From positions 186,001 to 250,000 of the forward strand of contig NZ_JAHXBN010000001.1 of NCBI RefSeq assembly GCF_019924045.1: 64,000 nucleotides of DNA, read 5' to 3'. The stretch comes from Dyadobacter fermentans. GTDB taxonomy: Bacteria; Bacteroidota; Bacteroidia; Cytophagales; Spirosomataceae. A program made the translations under genes and the position numbers. Under the pieces are notes generated by a model. The model did not search any database, had not been told where the DNA came from, and saw only the letters and a program-made list of their open reading frames with translations. Position 1 is the first letter of the stretch. Each line of letters starts with the position of its first letter. Positions 49,828 to 57,735 of this stretch are shown here, piece after piece.

Positions 49828-50283
49828 ATGTCCCACCGCAAACCAACCAGTGAACTAACCCCAAAGGCCTTCGCGGCCGTGCGGGAACTTGAAAAGTACG
49901 TCGCATCCACCGGGCTCGACAAAGTGCATTACAAACTGATCAAAATCCGCGCCTCCCAGATTAACGGATGTGGGTTTTGCCTGGATATGCACGCACGCCA
50001 GGCCCGCGAAATGGGTATGACCGAGCAACGCATATATATGTTAAGCGCTTGGCGCGAGGCGAATATTTACACAGAAGAAGAAAAGGCGATCCTGGCACTC
50101 ACCGAGCAAGTGACGCTCATCAGCCAGGGCGGTGTGAGCGACGAGGTGTACGGCCGGGCGGTGGCGCTGCTTGGAGAGGAATATACCAAAGCCGTGGTCA
50201 TGGGCGTGGTGGCGATCAGTGCGTGGAACCGCATTATGATCACCGACCAGGTGGCGGTCAATGCGGTGGAGAGCTATGTTTAA
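49828..50283 (+). CDS. Carboxymuconolactone decarboxylase/AhpD-like protein
   Basis: 151 residues of the AhpD-like all-helical fold. The redox site INGCGFCLDMHARQA carries CxxC plus His, as in AhpD peroxidase partners, so antioxidant or peroxide-related activity is likelier than decarboxylation. Its end overlaps the next gene, suggesting one transcript with the PEP-mutase family enzyme. The TGAC repeat pair lies immediately upstream. Confidence 0.9.
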   Translation: MSHRKPTSELTPKAFAAVRELEKYVASTGLDKVHYKLIKIRASQINGCGFCLDMHARQAREMGMTEQRIYMLSAWREANIYTEEEKAILALTEQVTLISQGGVSDEVYGRAVALLGEEYTKAVVMGVVAISAWNRIMITDQVAVNAVESYV

Positions 50284-51100
50284 CAGTCGTCCTATTCAGA
50301 TGAATAGCCAGTCGGAAAGGGCCGACTTGCTCAAAAAGCTGCACCATAGCGGTAAAATGCTCGTACTGCCCAATATTTGGGATGCTGCCGGCGCCGCAAT
50401 GCTTGAACATCTGGGTTATCCGGCTGTGGCCACGGCCAGTGCCGCCATTGCACGTGCACACGGTTATGAAGACGGCGAGCGGATCCCGTTTGATTTTCTG
50501 CTAAGTATCGTGGCGCAAATCGTGAAGGCGGTGAGTGTACCGGTTACAGTGGACATCGAGGCAGGCTATGCGGTCGATAACGAGCTATTGAAGTCCAATA
50601 TCCGTCGCCTCATTGCCGCCGGGGTAGCCGGTATCAACATCGAGGATTCCGACGTGCGTACGCGTGAACTGCTGCCGGTGGGTGAGCAGGTAGAGAAGCT
50701 GAAAGTGATCGGGCGGGTGGCGGAAAGGGAGAATACCAGGCTGTTTATCAATGCCCGAACGGATGTGTTTCTCCTGAACCCCGAATTGCCCGAAGAACAA
50801 AAACTAGCGCTGGCGATCGAGCGCAGTCGCGCGTACGTGGAAGCGGGCGCCGACTGTATTTATCCAATCTTCGCCACGAAGGAGGAAACGCTCAAAACGT
50901 TGGTAAATGCGCTGAAGGTCCCTGTGAATGTAATTGCCAAATGCGATACGCCCGATCTGGATGTACTCCAAAAGCTGGGTGTGGCACGTGTGAGCTTTGG
51001 GCCGAACGTGCAACGGGCCGCATTGTTGTCAATGGAAACATTGCTGAAAGATGTGAAGGAAAGCCTCAGCCATAAACCGGTTACCAACCTGCTCATGTGA
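50276..51100 (+). CDS. Isocitrate lyase/PEP mutase superfamily enzyme
   Basis: 274 residues from ATG 50276, which overlaps the previous gene by 8 bp; an ATG at 50300 is nearly as good. It is a TIM barrel with LVLPNIWDAAGAAMLEHLGY, VTVDIEAGYAVDN (metal ligands) and GVAGINIEDSDVRT. The catalytic loop lacks the EDK-x5-NS motif of true PEP mutase and the KKCGH of isocitrate lyase. It belongs to the uncharacterised branch near oxaloacetate decarboxylase and 2-methylisocitrate lyase, so it should not be called PEP mutase despite phosphonate genes nearby. Confidence 0.87.
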   Translation: MFNSRPIQMNSQSERADLLKKLHHSGKMLVLPNIWDAAGAAMLEHLGYPAVATASAAIARAHGYEDGERIPFDFLLSIVAQIVKAVSVPVTVDIEAGYAVDNELLKSNIRRLIAAGVAGINIEDSDVRTRELLPVGEQVEKLKVIGRVAERENTRLFINARTDVFLLNPELPEEQKLALAIERSRAYVEAGADCIYPIFATKEETLKTLVNALKVPVNVIAKCDTPDLDVLQKLGVARVSFGPNVQRAALLSMETLLKDVKESLSHKPVTNLLM

Positions 51101-51237: not shown

Positions 51238-51816
51238 ATGCAGGAGGACATTCTTTTTCAGATCAGCAATAAATTAAAGGAAGTCAGAAAGGGTAAGGGG
51301 GTTACCCTTCAGGAGATTGCCGACGAGGCGGGCGTAACGAAAAGCCTTGTGTCCCAGATCGAAAACAGCCGGACGATCCCCTCGTTGCCGGTAATGCTGG
51401 GGTTGATCAAGGCGTTGGATATTGACCTGAACGTGTTTTTCAAGGACATCATTTCAACTGCGCCGGGTGAAAGCGTGCTGGTTCGCCGGAAGGAGGAGTA
51501 CCAGCCTTTTACGAAGGAAAACGCGAAAGGGTACTTCTATCAGCGCATCTTCAGCAAGCAATTCAAGGACAACCATATCGATGTGGTGCTGCTTCGGCTC
51601 GAAAAAGACGCGAAGCGGCCGATGGTGCGTACCAATGCATTCGAATTTAAATATGTGCTTTCCGGCGCGGTGGAATACACCGTGGGGAAAAATAAATATA
51701 TCCTGAACGAGGGCGATTCTATGTTTTTCGATGCGAACGAGCTGCATAACCTTAAATGCTACGATTGCGACGAGGCGGTACTGCTCGTTATTTACTTCTT
51801 CAACGACGCTCAGTAG
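51238..51816 (+). CDS. XRE-family regulator with C-terminal cupin domain
   Basis: 192 residues. Residues 8-62 form a Cro/CI helix-turn-helix (TLQEIADEAGVTKSLVSQIE). Residues about 105-190 are a cupin (FEFKYVLSGAVEYTVGKNKY, EGDSMFFDANELHNLKC) that would bind a small ligand. Regulators of this build often govern amino-acid or aminophosphonate catabolism. It precedes the HAD/FAD/aminotransferase genes in the same direction after a 304-bp gap, so it is the likely local regulator. Confidence 0.9.
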   Translation: MQEDILFQISNKLKEVRKGKGVTLQEIADEAGVTKSLVSQIENSRTIPSLPVMLGLIKALDIDLNVFFKDIISTAPGESVLVRRKEEYQPFTKENAKGYFYQRIFSKQFKDNHIDVVLLRLEKDAKRPMVRTNAFEFKYVLSGAVEYTVGKNKYILNEGDSMFFDANELHNLKCYDCDEAVLLVIYFFNDAQ

Positions 51817-51866
51817 GCCTTTTAGGAAATTCTTCTTGTTAAATATTAATTAACATTCACTTAACC

Positions 51867-51894
51867 TTTGACTGGGTTCGGTTCACTAGTTTTG
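51867..51894 (+). promoter_or_regulatory. Candidate promoter for the phosphonate operon
   Basis: TTTG (51867-51870) and TAGTTTTG (51887-51894) resemble the -33 and -7 boxes; the 16-bp spacer is short. A start near 51900 would give a leader of about 220 nt. The gap 51817-52120 is AT-rich with no other feature that I can name. Confidence 0.4.
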
Positions 51895-52120
51895 CGGTGA
51901 TCAAGGTTTTGTTATGCTAAATTTTTAATATTAGTTAACTTTTTCTTGCGTGTTAGAAGAATTTGCAATATTTTCAGCTGTAAACCAATGTTAGCCAGGA
52001 AACGATGGAATGTGGAAGTTAAATTTTACTAAACATTTCGGCTTGAATTGTCATCCTGCCCAAAAACAGACATTGTTTACGAGAAAGTTTAGTATTAGTT
52101 CACCAATTATACCAAGTGAG

Positions 52121-52825
52121 ATGTCGATAGAACTGGTAGTTTTCGATATGGCAGGTACGACTGTCAAGGATAAAAATTTTGTAGGAATTGCATTTCAGCA
52201 GGCCATGCGGTCACAGGGATATGAGATCGCCATCGAGCATGTGAACCCGCTGATGGGTTATGAGAAGCCGCTGGCCATTAAAATGATGCTCGAAGTGCGG
52301 GAGTCCGACAAGTCGAAGATTACGGCGGAGTTGGTGGATGCCATTCACACGCACTTTGTGAACGGGATGATCGGCTTCTATCAAACGACCACCGAAATAG
52401 CGCCGCTGCCACATGTGGAAGAGACTTTCAGCGCGCTTCGCGAACAGGGAATTAAAATTGCATTGAACACCGGTTTCTCCCGGGATATTGCCGATGTGAT
52501 CGTGAGCCGGTTAGGCTGGGGGGATAAGATAGATTGCCTCGTAGCCAGCGATGAAGTGCCTTACGGGCGCCCATACCCGGATATGATCCGCAAGATCATG
52601 GCTGAACTGGGGATCGCCTCGGGTGAGCGTGTTGCCAAAGTCGGCGATACCGAAGTGGATATTAATGAAGGGATTAATGCGGGATGCAAATACGTGATCG
52701 GGGTTACTACCGGCGCATTTACGCGCGAGGCGCTGCTGCCTTACAAGCCTACGCATATCATCGATGATATCGCCGAGGTGCCGGGCATTATCTCGGCCAG
52801 TCATGAAATGGCTGTCCAGGGTTAA
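52121..52825 (+). CDS. Phosphonatase-like HAD hydrolase (PhnX-like)
   Basis: 234 residues from the ATG at 52121 (MSIELVVFD). Nucleophile D9 is in FDMAGTTV; the +2 position is Ala, as in phosphonoacetaldehyde hydrolase, not the Asp of ordinary HAD phosphatases. K49 in LMGYEK aligns with the Schiff-base lysine of PhnX (MGLLK). GRPYPDMI and VGDTEVDINEGINAG complete the pattern. It should cleave the C-P bond of phosphonoacetaldehyde or a close analogue. It heads a five-gene operon, 29 bp before the FAD enzyme. Confidence 0.88.
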   Translation: MSIELVVFDMAGTTVKDKNFVGIAFQQAMRSQGYEIAIEHVNPLMGYEKPLAIKMMLEVRESDKSKITAELVDAIHTHFVNGMIGFYQTTTEIAPLPHVEETFSALREQGIKIALNTGFSRDIADVIVSRLGWGDKIDCLVASDEVPYGRPYPDMIRKIMAELGIASGERVAKVGDTEVDINEGINAGCKYVIGVTTGAFTREALLPYKPTHIIDDIAEVPGIISASHEMAVQG

Positions 52826-52954
52826 TTCACTCACATTCATATCAGATTAAAAGCATGAGTAAATCCGCGATTGTCATCGGGGCTGGAATAGTTGGTTTGG
52901 CGACGGCAAGGGCTTTGGCCACAAGAGGTTACCAGGTAACAGTGATCGAACGTT
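52121..52954 (+). other. Start region of the aminophosphonate catabolic operon
   Basis: From here five genes run rightward to 57685 with gaps of 10-34 bp: HAD hydrolase, FAD oxidoreductase, phosphatase-superfamily enzyme, class III PLP enzyme and DUF5690 protein. The spacing supports a single transcript. Confidence 0.6.
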
Positions 52955-53982
52955 CTTCGCAAGCCGTGGGGGCATCCATCCGTAATTTCGGAATGGTGTG
53001 GCCGATCGGTCAGCCGGAGGGTACATTATATGAAAGGGCATTGCATGCCAAAAGTATCTGGAAAGAGGTGCTGGCGGGTGCGAAATGCTGGTCGCAGGAG
53101 GCGGGAAGCCTGCATATGGCCTACCAGCAGGATGAACTGGAAGTGATCCAGCAGTTTGTGGAGGTTAGCCCTTATCGTCCTGTGAGTTTCCTGAATGCAG
53201 AACAAACGGTCGCGAAATCGCCGGCTGTGAATCCCGACGGGCTGTTGGGGTCGCTGTATTCGGCGGATGAAATGATCGTCGACCCACGCGAGGCCATTGC
53301 GGCTATCCCGGGTTACCTCACGGCTGTATTGGGCGTCACATTTATCTGGAATACGGCTATTTCGAAGGTAGCTTATCCTGCGGTGTTTTCGGGTTCGAAA
53401 AGCTGGTCGGCGGATGAGATCTTCGTTTGCAGCGGCCAGGATTTTGAAACACTTTATCCCGAACAATTTTCGGCGGCGCCGCTGACCAAATGCAAGCTGC
53501 AAATGATGCGCCTCGAAGCGCAGCCCGACGACTGGCGGATTGGTCCGGCGCTATGCGGGGGATTGTCTTTCATTCACTATCACGGGTTCAAGGCGGCAGC
53601 GTCATTGCCAGGCCTGAAAGCCCGATACGAAAGCGAATATGCCGAATACCTCAAATGGGGCATCCACGTGATGGCATCGCAAAACGGTTTAGGGGAGATT
53701 ACGGTGGGTGATTCACATGAGTACGCGCTCACTTTTGATCCGTTCGACCGGGAGTTTATCAATACCATGATCCTCGACTACCTGGGGACATTTGCGCAAT
53801 TCAAATCGCCGAAAGTGTACCAGAGCTGGCACGGGATCTATCCTAAAATGACGAATGGGGCCACGGAGATTGTTTTAAAGCCCGAGAGTGGTGTGACGAT
53901 CATCAACGGCCTCGGCGGAAACGGCATGACCCTTTCGTTTGGCCTTTGCGATGAAGTAGTTGGTGGAACTTACCAGTCCTAA
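52855..53982 (+). CDS. FAD-dependent oxidoreductase (TIGR03364-type, aminophosphonate-associated)
   Basis: 375 residues of the DAO/glycine-oxidase fold: dinucleotide motif AIVIGAGIVGLATARALATR with E near 32, then GASIRNFGMVWPIGQ and a C-terminal INGLGGNGMTLSFGL. The subfamily is known from phosphonate gene clusters, where members oxidise aminoethylphosphonate or its N-methyl form to phosphonoacetaldehyde. Its place between a phosphonatase-like hydrolase and a phosphatase-superfamily enzyme fits. It could replace the missing PhnW transaminase. Confidence 0.88.
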   Translation: MSKSAIVIGAGIVGLATARALATRGYQVTVIERSSQAVGASIRNFGMVWPIGQPEGTLYERALHAKSIWKEVLAGAKCWSQEAGSLHMAYQQDELEVIQQFVEVSPYRPVSFLNAEQTVAKSPAVNPDGLLGSLYSADEMIVDPREAIAAIPGYLTAVLGVTFIWNTAISKVAYPAVFSGSKSWSADEIFVCSGQDFETLYPEQFSAAPLTKCKLQMMRLEAQPDDWRIGPALCGGLSFIHYHGFKAAASLPGLKARYESEYAEYLKWGIHVMASQNGLGEITVGDSHEYALTFDPFDREFINTMILDYLGTFAQFKSPKVYQSWHGIYPKMTNGATEIVLKPESGVTIINGLGGNGMTLSFGLCDEVVGGTYQS

Positions 53983-53992
53983 ATTCTGATAT

Positions 53993-54970
53993 ATGCTTGC
54001 AAAAGTTTCCTGTGCATTGGCGGTGGCTTCTTTGTTGCTGACCGCATCTCATTCCCGGTTTGAAGGAGCTTCGTCGGGGCAAACCGGGTTGGACGAAAAG
54101 CCTTCGGGCATCGAACATGTCATTGTGATTGGTGTCGATGGATTGAGCCCTGACGGTATCCAAAAGGCCAAAACGCCGAATATCGACCGGATGGTGGCCA
54201 ATGGTGCAGTGAAATGGAACGTGCGGACGGTGCTTACCTCTGCAAGCAGCCAGAATTGGGCGTCGATGATCATGGGCGCAGGCCCGGAACAACACGGGAT
54301 TATCAACAACGATTGGGAGTTGAACAAACACACGCTTCCACCCATTGCGCAGGAGGCCGACGGTCGTTTTCCGACGATTTTCAGCATTTTACATAAGGCA
54401 AGGCCCAATGCGGAAATCGGTACGGTGTACCATTGGGGTGGTTTTGGAAGATTATTTCAGAAGAATGCAGTGAGTTACGACAAGCATTTCTCGACGGAAG
54501 ATTCCACGGCCACTGATTTCATTCAATATATTAAAAACAAAAAGCCGGTACTGGGCTTCGTGCATTTTGACCACGTAGATCACGCCGGCCACCACGACGG
54601 GCATGGGTCGGTGCAGTATTATCAGTCCGTTACGAAGGCCGATTCGTTGGTTGGCAAAATTCTCGCAGGTATTAAAGAGGCCGGTATCGCCGAAAAAACG
54701 CTGGTAATTCTTTGGGCTGACCATGGTGGCATTGGTAAGGGGCACGGTGGTGCTACCCCGCAGGAGGCGGAAATTGCAGGTGTATTTTCCGGTGCAGGTG
54801 TAAAGAAGGGTTATTCAATACAACAGCAAGTCTATACTTACGACCTCGCTTCGACGATCGCATTTGCGCTGGGTGTCGAGCAGCCTTATGCGTGGATCGG
54901 TCGTCCGGTGAAGCCGGTTTTTAAAGGGTTTGATGAACCTAAGAACCTCTGGCTCGGCGAAAAACCTTAA
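53993..54970 (+). CDS. Alkaline phosphatase superfamily hydrolase (phosphodiesterase/phosphonoacetate hydrolase-like), exported
   Basis: 325 residues with an N-terminal signal (1-20). Metal ligands appear in VIGVDGLSPDG, HFDHVDHAGHHDG and WADHGGIGKGHGG; the nucleophile region is VLTSASSQNWASM, with Ser where Thr is usual. The fold is that of nucleotide pyrophosphatases and of phosphonoacetate hydrolase PhnA. As an exported enzyme it may free an aminophosphonate from an ester outside the cytoplasm. It starts 10 bp after the FAD gene. Confidence 0.87.
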   Translation: MLAKVSCALAVASLLLTASHSRFEGASSGQTGLDEKPSGIEHVIVIGVDGLSPDGIQKAKTPNIDRMVANGAVKWNVRTVLTSASSQNWASMIMGAGPEQHGIINNDWELNKHTLPPIAQEADGRFPTIFSILHKARPNAEIGTVYHWGGFGRLFQKNAVSYDKHFSTEDSTATDFIQYIKNKKPVLGFVHFDHVDHAGHHDGHGSVQYYQSVTKADSLVGKILAGIKEAGIAEKTLVILWADHGGIGKGHGGATPQEAEIAGVFSGAGVKKGYSIQQQVYTYDLASTIAFALGVEQPYAWIGRPVKPVFKGFDEPKNLWLGEKP

Positions 54971-55004
54971 ATTGGTTCGAAGCATTTAACCCTGAACCCT
55001 GCGA

Positions 55005-56363
55005 ATGGCAGCTGTACACAACCGAACGGAAGGCGACATCAATTTATCATCCGCGCGTCAGGATTGGTATGCGGTCATCAGCGACCCCGAAACTTCGGGC
55101 TACCTGCATGAAGATGCGGAATATTTCCTGCATCAGTCGCTTTCCACGCCCTGCCTGGACGTGCTCGCCTCATGCGAAGGCATTTACCTGACCGATGTGC
55201 AGGGCAAGCGCTACATGGATTTTCACGGGAACAATGTTCATCAGCTCGGCTATCGGCACCCTTATGTGATCGAAAAGCTGAAAGAGCAAATGGATATCCT
55301 GCCGTTTTCGCCGCGCAGATATACCAATGTGCCGGCCATTGAACTGGCTAAAAAGCTCGGCAAACTCATGCCTGGCGACCTCAATCGCGTGCTTTTCGCG
55401 CCGGGGGGCACTTCTGCGATCAGTATGGCATTGAAACTCGCCCGCATTGTGACGGGCAAACATAAGGTAGTATCGCTTTGGGATTCATTCCACGGCGCTT
55501 CGCTGGATGCGATTTCTGCCGGCGGCGAGCTTGATTTTCGTAAAGATATGGGGCCGTTAATGCCCGGTGTGGAGCGCATTCCGCCGCCGATGACCTACCG
55601 CGGACCATTTACAGCAGCGGGAAACGGCGATATTCCTTATGCGGATTATCTCGAATATGTAATTGAAAAGGAAGGTGATATCGGCGCTTTTGTGATCGAG
55701 ACTATCCGCAATACCGATGTGCAGATTCCCTCCCAGGCCTATTGGGAGCGCGTACGGGAGATTTGCACGAGGCATAAAGTACTCCTCATTCTGGATGAAA
55801 TTCCGATCGCATTCGGGCGGACGGGGAAGATGTTTGCCTTCGAACACTACGGTTTCGAGCCGGATGTTGTGTGTCTCGGCAAAGGGCTGGGCGGCGGTGT
55901 AATGCCGATGGCCGCTATCGTAGCACGCGATAGTTATAATGTGGCGCAGAGCGTTTCGCTGGGGCATTTTACGCACGAAAAAAGCCCCTTGGGCAGTGTG
56001 GCCGCATTGGCGATGCTGGATTTTATCGAGCAAAACGATCTGCTGGCCAAAGTGAATGCGGACGCGGAGTTTATGCGTGTGGAGCTGGAAAAACTGAAAG
56101 ACAAATATCCGCTCATCGGCGAGGTGCGCGGGATCGGACTGCTGTGGGGTGTGGAGCTGGTGAGAGACCGCGGGACGAAGGAAAAGGCCGTGCAGGAAGC
56201 CGAAACGGTCATGTACGAATGCCTCAAAAACGGTTTGAGCTTCAAGGTGTCACAAGGGAATGTCGTGCAGCTTTCGCCGCCGATCATTATCACCCGCGAG
56301 CAACTGAAAGAAGCATTGCAGATTCTGGAAAAAGCCATCGAAACGGCTTCGGTTTTGGTATAG
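55005..56363 (+). CDS. Class III PLP enzyme (aminotransferase family; PbfA-like candidate)
   Basis: 452 residues. Fold-type I PLP enzyme with YMDFHGNNVHQLGYRHP, APGGTSAISMALKLAR, D264 in LILDEIPIAFGRTG and the Schiff-base K293 in CLGKGLGGGVMPMAA. In phosphonate clusters such proteins include the (R)-1-hydroxy-2-aminoethylphosphonate ammonia-lyase PbfA, which yields phosphonoacetaldehyde. The operon context makes that more likely than an ordinary omega-transaminase, but I cannot tell lyase from transaminase by eye. Confidence 0.85.
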   Translation: MAAVHNRTEGDINLSSARQDWYAVISDPETSGYLHEDAEYFLHQSLSTPCLDVLASCEGIYLTDVQGKRYMDFHGNNVHQLGYRHPYVIEKLKEQMDILPFSPRRYTNVPAIELAKKLGKLMPGDLNRVLFAPGGTSAISMALKLARIVTGKHKVVSLWDSFHGASLDAISAGGELDFRKDMGPLMPGVERIPPPMTYRGPFTAAGNGDIPYADYLEYVIEKEGDIGAFVIETIRNTDVQIPSQAYWERVREICTRHKVLLILDEIPIAFGRTGKMFAFEHYGFEPDVVCLGKGLGGGVMPMAAIVARDSYNVAQSVSLGHFTHEKSPLGSVAALAMLDFIEQNDLLAKVNADAEFMRVELEKLKDKYPLIGEVRGIGLLWGVELVRDRGTKEKAVQEAETVMYECLKNGLSFKVSQGNVVQLSPPIIITREQLKEALQILEKAIETASVLV

Positions 56364-56383
56364 AAAACTCAACACTTAACCAT

Positions 56384-57685
56384 ATGCGCCTGAAAGAAGC
56401 ACTTACGCGATCGAATACGTTTTTTATCAGTTGGGCTGTTATCGCTTCGTTCGGGGCATATTTCTGCATGTATGCTTTCCGCAAGCCGTTTAATGCAGGG
56501 CTCTACCAGGGACTCGAGCTCGGTGAGGTGAGCTACAAGGCGATCCTGATCATTTCGCAAGTGGCGGGTTATACGCTTTCCAAGTTTGCGGGGATTAAAG
56601 TGATTTCTGAATTGAAACACAATGCGCGGGTCAAGCTGGTGATCGGGTTGATTCTCATTGCGGAACTTGCATTGCTGTGTTTCGGGCTGGTCCCGTATCC
56701 CTATAATTTCGTTTTTATGTTCATGAACGGCTTGCCGCTCGGGATGGTCTACGGTGTGGTATTCAGCTTTCTGGAAGGGCGCCGATTTACGGAAATGCTT
56801 GCGATGGGTTTAAATATCAGCGTGGTGGTGGCGTCCGGGATTCTTAAAACAACTTATATTGAAGTTCACGGTCTGTTTCCCGGCATCTCGGAATTCTGGA
56901 TGCCGTTTTTTATGGGTCTACTTTTCCTGCCGCTGTTTCTGATGTTCGTATGGATGCTCTCGGTAATTCCCAGGCCGACGATCGAAGACATTGCCTTGCG
57001 TACGGAGCGCTTGCCTATGACGAGTGCGGACAAGCGGCTGGTGATGCGGCAGTTTGGCTTTCCAATCGTTTGTCTGGTTATTTTCTACGCCACACTGGTG
57101 GTCGTGCGCGATTTCCGCGACAATTTCACTATTGAAATCTGGAACGAGATCGATTCGCACTGGGGGAGCGGCGTGCTCACCACTACCGAAATGATCACGG
57201 GGATTGTGGTGCTGGTGATCATCGGCGGGTTGGCATTTGTGCGGGATAACCTCACGGGTTTCAGGCTTACCTACCTCATTCTGTTCTCAGGTATCACGCT
57301 GATCGGCATAGGGACGCTGCTGTTCGAGAAGTCGGTAATCAGCGGTTTCGACTGGATGCTGATGGTCGGCTTAGGTTTGTTCCTGGCTTATACGGTACTG
57401 CAAACCGTCGTTTTCGAGCGGATGATCGCATTGTACCGGATCAAAGCCAATGCGGGGTATTTTGTGTACATCTGCGAGAGCATCGGCTATATGGGTAGCG
57501 TGGGGTTATTGCTCTACAAGGAGTTTTTTATGAAAGACCTGAGCTGGTCGCGGGTGCTGATGCAATTCTCTTACCTGCAATTCTGCCTGGGGTTGCTGCT
57601 GCTCGCTGCCAGCAATATCTTCTTCGATAAGTACCGTTCGGGACGTTCGGCTTCCAAGGTCGGTACGCCGTTTGCTGCGGCCTGA
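56384..57685 (+). CDS. DUF5690 family membrane protein (MFS-like; candidate phosphonate permease)
   Basis: 433 residues from the ATG at 56384 (MRLKEALTR); the frame is open upstream but that part overlaps the PLP enzyme. About 11-12 helices, with FGAYFCMYAFRKPFNAGLYQ and MFMNGLPLGMVYGVVFSFLE, resembling organophosphate-antiporter MFS proteins. It is the last gene of the operon, 20 bp after the PLP enzyme. No other transporter is present in the locus, so substrate uptake is the simplest role. Function is inference. Confidence 0.85.
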   Translation: MRLKEALTRSNTFFISWAVIASFGAYFCMYAFRKPFNAGLYQGLELGEVSYKAILIISQVAGYTLSKFAGIKVISELKHNARVKLVIGLILIAELALLCFGLVPYPYNFVFMFMNGLPLGMVYGVVFSFLEGRRFTEMLAMGLNISVVVASGILKTTYIEVHGLFPGISEFWMPFFMGLLFLPLFLMFVWMLSVIPRPTIEDIALRTERLPMTSADKRLVMRQFGFPIVCLVIFYATLVVVRDFRDNFTIEIWNEIDSHWGSGVLTTTEMITGIVVLVIIGGLAFVRDNLTGFRLTYLILFSGITLIGIGTLLFEKSVISGFDWMLMVGLGLFLAYTVLQTVVFERMIALYRIKANAGYFVYICESIGYMGSVGLLLYKEFFMKDLSWSRVLMQFSYLQFCLGLLLLAASNIFFDKYRSGRSASKVGTPFAAA

Positions 57686-57704: not shown

Positions 57705-57735
57705 AAAAAAAGGAGGTGCAAGTGCCCTCCTTTTT
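57705..57735. terminator. Bidirectional terminator
   Basis: AAAAAGGAGG (57707-57716) pairs with CCTCCTTTTT (57726-57735) around a 9-nt loop, with A/T runs on both sides. It closes the phosphonate operon from the left and the 57772 gene from the right. Confidence 0.85.

What the first reader, a model, noticed from the sequence alone, without database searches (positions are those of the whole stretch)
51238..57685. Aminophosphonate catabolic operon without PhnW
One short transcript carries a phosphonatase-like HAD (D9, Ala+2, K49), a TIGR03364-type FAD oxidoreductase, an exported phosphatase-superfamily enzyme, a class III PLP enzyme and a DUF5690 membrane protein behind an XRE-cupin regulator. 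The classical 2-aminoethylphosphonate route needs PhnW, which is absent here. The FAD enzyme and a PbfA-like lyase could both deliver phosphonoacetaldehyde to the HAD, giving a route that also takes N-methyl or hydroxylated substrates. The exported enzyme may release them from esters.
Basis: partly seen in the sequence, partly recalled or inferred. Interest (0 to 1): 0.7.

Follow-up and report, generated by a model that had tools for sequence, protein, structure and literature searches.

The report
Aminophosphonate operon with a new-family transporter
A Dyadobacter-type bacterium carries a compact operon that probably imports and breaks down aminophosphonates by a route already described elsewhere, and its gene of unknown function, DUF5690, is very likely the importer, which would give a function to a large unnamed protein family.

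Summary
The operon is real. In this near-complete Dyadobacter-type genome it encodes, behind an XRE-cupin regulator, a phosphonatase-like HAD, a TIGR03364 FAD oxidase, an exported NPP-type phosphodiesterase, PbfA and DUF5690. PhnW, PhnA and C-P lyase (PhnJ) were not found over cut-off.

New here is DUF5690 (PF18943), found in no held paper. Among 198 genomes of the phylum it occurs in 17; all 11 with TIGR03364, all 7 with PbfA and 3 of 4 with PhnW (over cut-off) are among them. Of the 80 closest DUF5690 loci in named genomes, 77 have phosphonate-catabolism genes within 10 kb (median gap 42 bp); 0 of 22 control stretches do. Partners vary while DUF5690 stays; the next many-helix family occurs at 7 of 88 loci. 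Its predicted fold is MFS, nearest (narrowly) to organophosphate antiporters; residues aligning with GlpT R45, K80 and R269 are invariant in 97 of 97.

Best reading: DUF5690 imports aminophosphonates, like AepP but not recognisably AepP; the exported enzyme probably frees them from esters. Transport and all catalysis are inferred.

The parts
51238..51816 (+). XRE-cupin transcription regulator, probably substrate-responsive (inferred)
   Evidence: Pfam HTH_3 1.5e-12 and Cupin_2 1.2e-11; relatives at 49 of 80 DUF5690 loci
51867..51894 (+). possible Bacteroidota-type promoter, TTTG-N16-TAGTTTTG
   Evidence: pattern match: 5 in the window against 1.8 expected by shuffling (3 of 100 shuffles reach 5), so weak by itself; consensus and its usual spacer are recalled
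52121..52825 (+). phosphonatase-like HAD hydrolase (likely start at 52121 rather than 52010)
   Evidence: TIGR03351 199 bits, TIGR01422 132.9; best solved relative phosphonoacetaldehyde hydrolase 1rql, E 7.5e-24, with D9 and K49 aligned; D9/A11/K49 invariant in 55 of 55
52855..53982 (+). FAD-dependent aminophosphonate oxidase, TIGR03364/PbfD-type
   Evidence: TIGR03364 423.8 bits, cut-off 285.1
53993..54970 (+). exported NPP-type phosphodiesterase, alkaline phosphatase superfamily, short form
   Evidence: PF01663 1.3e-29; signal-like N-terminus (by eye); PDB relative NPP 2gsn E 3.6e-15; D49, S85, N106, D196, H200, D243, H244, H251 each conserved in at least 29 of 32 aligned relatives (one 1219-aa row left out); model pLDDT 86.4, NPP fold
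55005..56363 (+). [quoted passage not shown]
   Evidence: NF049939 740.4 bits, cut-off 525
56384..57685 (+). DUF5690 membrane protein, proposed aminophosphonate importer (MFS)
   Evidence: PF18943 5.7e-142; genome context; model pLDDT 88.9; fold matches G6PT/SLC37A4 best, GlpT at rank 28
57707..57735 (+). probable intrinsic terminator closing the operon
   Evidence: 12-pair hairpin, -16.1 kcal/mol, z -3.1, with a T-rich 3' arm; not listed by the simple scan

Best explanation
The operon is a self-contained aminophosphonate-use module. The exported phosphodiesterase frees an aminophosphonate from an ester (lipid or glycan) in the periplasm or outside. DUF5690, an MFS protein resembling organophosphate antiporters, carries the free aminophosphonate across the inner membrane, perhaps in exchange for phosphate. 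Inside, the FAD enzyme oxidises 2-aminoethylphosphonate and/or its N-methyl form to phosphonoacetaldehyde, PbfA eliminates ammonia from (R)-1-hydroxy-2-aminoethylphosphonate to give the same aldehyde, and the HAD enzyme hydrolyses it to acetaldehyde and phosphate. PhnW is not needed. Shown here: gene content, family assignments, conserved catalytic residues, no PhnW, PhnA or PhnJ over cut-off in the genome, and the genome-wide link of DUF5690 to phosphonate catabolism. Inferred: every enzymatic activity, transport, its direction, and phosphate exchange.
Against: No experiment. The HAD falls below both phosphonatase cut-offs. Five of 17 DUF5690 genes in the 198-genome sample, 3 of 80 in named genomes and 6 of 8 in Pseudomonadota have no core phosphonate gene over cut-off nearby (one locus, L152/L186, is in both of the last two counts), so part of the family may carry other substrates. 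One genome (G179) has PhnW over the cut-off without DUF5690, and 4 of 5 further genomes with sub-cut-off PhnW matches (276-353 bits) lack it. The profile match to GlpT is only moderate (59%); sialin, URAT1, OCT1 and a galactonate symporter match the fold almost as well; BLASTP finds no similarity of DUF5690 to GlpT, UhpT or UhpC. Five other genes scoring 107-148 bits against an organophosphate-antiporter model (cut-off 407.75), and weaker ones, exist elsewhere in this genome and could also import the substrate. The 80 loci are those most similar to this DUF5690, and the reference proteins came from loci found with it.
Confidence: 0.77

Rival explanations
1. DUF5690 does not import aminophosphonates but exports a product (phosphate, or another by-product) or has a non-transport role, and uptake runs through another MFS protein.
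For: Direction cannot be read from sequence; the nearest fold matches include antiporters; other organophosphate-antiporter-like MFS genes exist in the genome.
Against: DUF5690 is linked to routes with different enzymes (FAD+HAD; PhnY+PhnA; PhnW; PbfA), which fits a shared substrate better than one enzyme-specific by-product, though phosphate is shared too. No other many-helix membrane family is near DUF5690 in more than 7 of 88 loci.
Confidence: 0.13
2. The HAD enzyme's natural substrate is a close relative of phosphonoacetaldehyde, so the FAD enzyme acts mainly on an aminophosphonate other than AEP.
For: TIGR03351 is a hypothetical equivalog separate from classical phosphonatase; here 199 bits against 132.9 for TIGR01422. 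Of 10 relatives scanned, 5 pass the TIGR03351 cut-off and none passes TIGR01422.
Against: PbfD enzymes give phosphonoacetaldehyde in published work and one (PbfD1) is itself annotated TIGR03364 (PMC10590968). The Schiff-base Lys and D-x-Ala signature are invariant in 55 of 55.
Confidence: 0.15
3. The exported enzyme is a general phosphate-scavenging phosphodiesterase with no special link to aminophosphonates.
For: NPP-type sequence and fold are generic. No such gene is seen in 29 of 80 DUF5690 loci at the cut-offs used.
Against: AP-superfamily phosphoesterase-type genes of three types recur at 51 of 80 loci and at none of 22 control stretches. One scanned relative (L057) carries C-terminal Laminin_G_3 and DUF4983 domains, which hints at a glycan-attached substrate.
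Confidence: 0.35
4. The operon is an ordinary amine or amino-acid catabolic operon unrelated to phosphonates.
For: Class III aminotransferases, DAO oxidoreductases and HAD hydrolases are large general families.
Against: PbfA and TIGR03364 pass curated cut-offs by wide margins. Comparable loci contain PhnW, PhnY and PhnA over their cut-offs.
Confidence: 0.02

Closest known systems
PbfD2 + PhnX route without PhnW (Zangelmi et al. 2023, PMC10590968)
   Same: TIGR03364-type FAD oxidase and phosphonatase-type HAD in one cluster, no PhnW in cluster or genome
   Different: Here PbfA, an exported NPP-type enzyme and DUF5690 are in the same operon; the HAD is TIGR03351-like rather than classical PhnX; membership in the PbfD2 subgroup was not tested
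PbfA clusters (described in PMC12366243 and PMC10590968)
   Same: NF049939 over the cut-off; pbfA associated with phnX in phyla other than Proteobacteria is already noted in PMC12366243
   Different: No PhnW and no PhnY/PhnA in this operon
AepP, the 2-aminoethylphosphonate permease of Pseudomonas putida BIRD-1 (PMC8316502)
   Same: MFS protein related to organophosphate antiporters, its genes next to AEP-degrading genes; the paper says it keeps GlpT's phosphate-binding residues, and three such positions appear kept here
   Different: AepP is 27.75% identical to GlpT by the paper; DUF5690 shows no BLASTP similarity to GlpT, UhpT or UhpC, only a moderate profile match, and has its own Pfam family. 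AepP itself was not compared directly
Pus/PusCD phosphate-utilisation loci of Flavobacterium (PMC8115612)
   Different: The name DUF5690 is not in that paper (no held paper has it); many loci here have SusCD-like genes, but none was seen near the window operon

Membership tests
[quoted passage not shown]
   740.4 bits against 525
[quoted passage not shown]
   Needs enzyme assay
TIGR03364 / PbfD FAD oxidases | Score over the TIGR03364 cut-off | tested here: met
   423.8 bits against 285.1
PbfD2 subgroup | Tree position with M. fucicola PbfD2 rather than A. baumannii PbfD1 | not tested
   Reference sequences were not obtained
TIGR03351 phosphonatase-like hydrolases | Score over curated cut-off 218.9 | tested here: not met
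   199 bits, though it is the best family by far; 5 of 10 relatives at DUF5690 loci pass
Phosphonatase (PhnX, TIGR01422) | Score over curated cut-off 220 | tested here: not met
   132.9 bits
Phosphonatase-type HAD chemistry | Nucleophile Asp, Ala at +2 and Schiff-base Lys aligned with PhnX (roles recalled) | tested here: met
   D9, A11, K49 aligned with 1rql; invariant in 55 of 55
DUF5690 (PF18943) | Score over Pfam gathering cut-off | tested here: met
   473.6 bits against 25
AepP / GlpT-like organophosphate:phosphate antiporters | BLASTP-level similarity to GlpT | tested here: not met
   No hit at E <= 1e-3 for GlpT, UhpT or UhpC against ORFs within 6 kb of DUF5690 at 88 loci, DUF5690 itself called at 85 of them
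AepP / GlpT-like organophosphate:phosphate antiporters | MFS fold | tested here: met
   Model pLDDT 88.9; matches are MFS proteins over the full length
AepP / GlpT-like organophosphate:phosphate antiporters | Fold closer to this family than to other MFS families | tested here: inconclusive
AepP / GlpT-like organophosphate:phosphate antiporters | Conserved Arg/Lys at GlpT R45, K80, R269 (roles recalled) | tested here: inconclusive
   Profile alignment pairs them with R33, K67, R242, invariant in 97 of 97, but the match probability is 59%
Aminophosphonate transporter | Substrate uptake | not testable with these tools
   Needs uptake assay

The most novel reading that the evidence does not exclude
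DUF5690 is a previously unrecognised family of aminophosphonate:phosphate antiporters, and many Bacteroidota run PUL-like aminophosphonate utilisation loci: SusCD uptake, an exported, often lectin-bearing phosphodiesterase that cuts aminophosphonate from glycans or lipids, DUF5690 import in exchange for the phosphate released inside, and interchangeable cytoplasmic entry enzymes. In Pseudomonadota the family extends to organophosphates freed by phospholipase C, PhoX or GDPD.
Probability: 0.4. Interest if true: 0.68.

Novelty: new variant of a known kind. Interest (0 to 1): 0.5.

Why it matters
The enzymology here is known, but the AEP importers described in the papers seen were characterised outside Bacteroidota (PMC8316502 mentions AepP in one Bacteroidetes genus; the passages of the 2023 review PMC10574752 seen, and a word count of its text, name neither Bacteroidetes nor Bacteroidota). 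Giving DUF5690 a function would annotate a family with 4377 homologues scored in one search and provide a marker gene for aminophosphonate use across Bacteroidota. Recurrent phosphodiesterase-type and SusCD-like genes point to polymer- or lipid-bound aminophosphonates as food, which can be tested directly.

Tried and rejected
Idea that DUF5690 is just a bystander: rejected on the 77 of 80 against 0 of 22 contrast; raising the score cut-offs left 77 of 80.

Idea that DUF5690 is AepP under another name: not supported by BLASTP against GlpT, UhpT and UhpC, but AepP itself could not be fetched for a direct comparison.

Idea that phosphonate-linked DUF5690 forms a single clade: rejected; linked members are spread over the whole tree (6 label changes, quick method, several long branches). 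The eight unlinked rows are scattered, apart from one group of three.

A sequence search of solved structures with the DUF5690 alignment gave nothing at E <= 0.1, and the FAD enzyme gave none at E <= 1e-10. The FAD enzyme could not be placed against PbfD1/PbfD2 because their sequences were not obtained. The sigma-70 promoter scan gave no excess (7 found, 8.5 expected).

Upstream AhpD-like and PEP-mutase-fold genes (49828-51100) were not taken as part of the operon: a PEP-mutase-fold relative recurs within 6 kb of DUF5690 in only 3 of 88 loci (the window's own copy lies at about that distance).

Unlinked DUF5690 loci followed up: of the three named ones, the genome of L146 has a TIGR03351 gene over the cut-off elsewhere; those of L091 and L152 have none at E <= 1e-25. 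L091 is cut short by its contig end.

L152 and L186 are the same locus.
Full report
1. The observation. The window lies in an 8.0 Mb genome (173 contigs, 99.99% complete) whose closest DUF5690 relatives in named genomes are Dyadobacter (95% identity). Family scans give an XRE-cupin regulator; a HAD protein whose best model is TIGR03351 PhnX-like (199 bits, cut-off 218.9); a TIGR03364 FAD oxidoreductase (423.8, cut-off 285.1); a PF01663 phosphodiesterase with a signal-like N-terminus; PbfA (NF049939, 740.4 bits, cut-off 525); and DUF5690. The HAD's family match begins near the inner ATG, 52121. A hairpin with a T-rich arm follows the last gene; a Bacteroidota-like promoter motif lies before the HAD gene (weak by itself).

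2. The chemistry. The HAD protein's best solved relative is phosphonoacetaldehyde hydrolase 1rql, with the nucleophile Asp and Schiff-base Lys aligned, and D9, A11 and K49 are invariant in 55 of 55 HADs from DUF5690 loci. PhnW and PhnA have no match over the curated cut-off in the whole genome, and PhnJ has no match. Published work (PMC10590968: abstract, sections 8 and 20, part 1 of the discussion, and passages read) shows PbfD enzymes make phosphonoacetaldehyde from N-methyl-AEP and, for PbfD2, from AEP, replacing PhnW, and notes that PbfD1 is annotated TIGR03364; PbfA makes it from (R)-HAEP (PMC12366243, passages). The by-products named for a PbfD2+PhnX route are hydrogen peroxide and acetaldehyde (PMC10590968, section 20).

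3. DUF5690. No held paper contains DUF5690 or PF18943. In the 120 homologues listed, source names are DUF5690 family protein, hypothetical protein, MFS transporter or MFS family permease. In 198 genomes of the phylum it is in 17. Genomes with TIGR03364 over cut-off: 11, all within the 17 (hypergeometric 3.6e-14). With PbfA over cut-off: 7, all within the 17. With PhnW over cut-off: 4, of which 3 are within the 17; the exception is G179, and 4 of 5 more genomes with PhnW matches under the cut-off also lack DUF5690. The own genome is one of the 198. Together 13 of 14 genomes with any of the three over cut-off have DUF5690, against 4 of 184 others (Fisher 4e-16); these tests treat related genomes as independent. 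Of the 17 loci, 12 have a core phosphonate gene nearby.

With tblastn references and fixed cut-offs, 77 of 80 have at least one core gene within 10 kb; the median gap is 42 bp and 69 of 77 are within 300 bp; 63 of 80 have one on the same strand within 150 bp; stricter cut-offs leave 77. Of 22 control stretches of 20 kb (20 from 14 of the sampled DUF5690 genomes, 2 from the window), 0 do. Partners differ: FAD+HAD 35, FAD+HAD+PbfA 12, PhnW alone 6, FAD+PhnA+PhnY 5, and smaller classes. PhnW, PhnY, PhnA and Phn-HD pass curated cut-offs in example loci, and HpnZ is just under its own. Eight of eight nearest Dyadobacter loci keep HAD, FAD, phosphodiesterase, PbfA and DUF5690. In ORFs within 6 kb at 88 linked loci, the next family with many predicted helices (549 aa) is at 7 loci, all of the Allomuricauda/Flagellimonas group; RND-like, NhaA-like and others are at 3 or 4. 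Caveats: the loci are those most similar to this DUF5690, and the reference proteins came from the first set of loci; L118 appears to be the same contig as L054.

6. The exported enzyme. It has NPP-type sequence and fold, with the expected metal-site residues and a Ser in place of the nucleophile Thr, each conserved in 29 or more of 32 (residue roles recalled). AP-superfamily phosphoesterase-type genes of three types occur at 51 of 80 loci, TonB-dependent receptors at 44 and SusD-like genes at 32, and at none of 22 controls. One scanned relative (L057) has C-terminal Laminin_G_3 and DUF4983 domains; several others are of similar length but were not scanned, and the window form is short. Release of ester-bound aminophosphonate is the best guess, with about one chance in three for a more general role.

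7. Outside Bacteroidota. In 299 genomes of the phylum of L152's genome (its record names Lysobacterales) DUF5690 is in 8. Two of the 8 loci have core genes over the cut-offs (L183 HAD and FAD; L184 FAD and Phn-HD, with a PhnX-type HAD at 70 bits); four more have phospholipase C, PhoX, GDPD or metallophosphoesterase genes nearby (L186-L189), L185 has a putative esterase, and L190's neighbours were not scanned. This suggests a wider organophosphorus role but has no matched control.

8. Verdict. Observation confirmed; route ordinary in the light of recent work; DUF5690 as aminophosphonate importer is the new, testable claim.

Noticed in passing
window 49828-51100: An AhpD-like carboxymuconolactone decarboxylase-family gene followed by a PEP-mutase/isocitrate-lyase-fold gene lies just upstream; a relative of the latter is within 6 kb of DUF5690 in only 3 of 88 loci, so it is probably unrelated.
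   Followed up: partly
L060 8430-9275, L063 10374-11231, L121: A PHP-domain (HisJ-like) protein sits between the FAD enzyme and DUF5690 in three loci; its role in phosphonate use is unknown.
   Followed up: partly
L061 11013-11591; also L055, L060, L063, L096, L100, L121, L132: Phn-HD-type (TIGR03276 in L061) proteins accompany DUF5690 in these loci, suggesting an oxidative side branch.
   Followed up: partly
L184, L186, L187, L188, L189: In this Pseudomonadota sample DUF5690 lies near phospholipase C, PhoX, GDPD or metallophosphoesterase genes.
   Followed up: partly
L069, L126, L129: DUF5690 next to an HpnZ-type alcohol dehydrogenase (TIGR03366, 324.5 bits in L069, just under its cut-off of 328.1), a proposed phosphonate-catabolism enzyme.
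   Followed up: no
L091, L092: Two DUF5690 matches in the same locus in Ferruginibacter, possibly tandem copies.
   Followed up: no
genome G179 C1:702502-707149: PhnW over the cut-off with a sub-cut-off, partial PbfA match about 3 kb away, in a genome without DUF5690: the one exception among genomes over cut-off in the sample.
   Followed up: no
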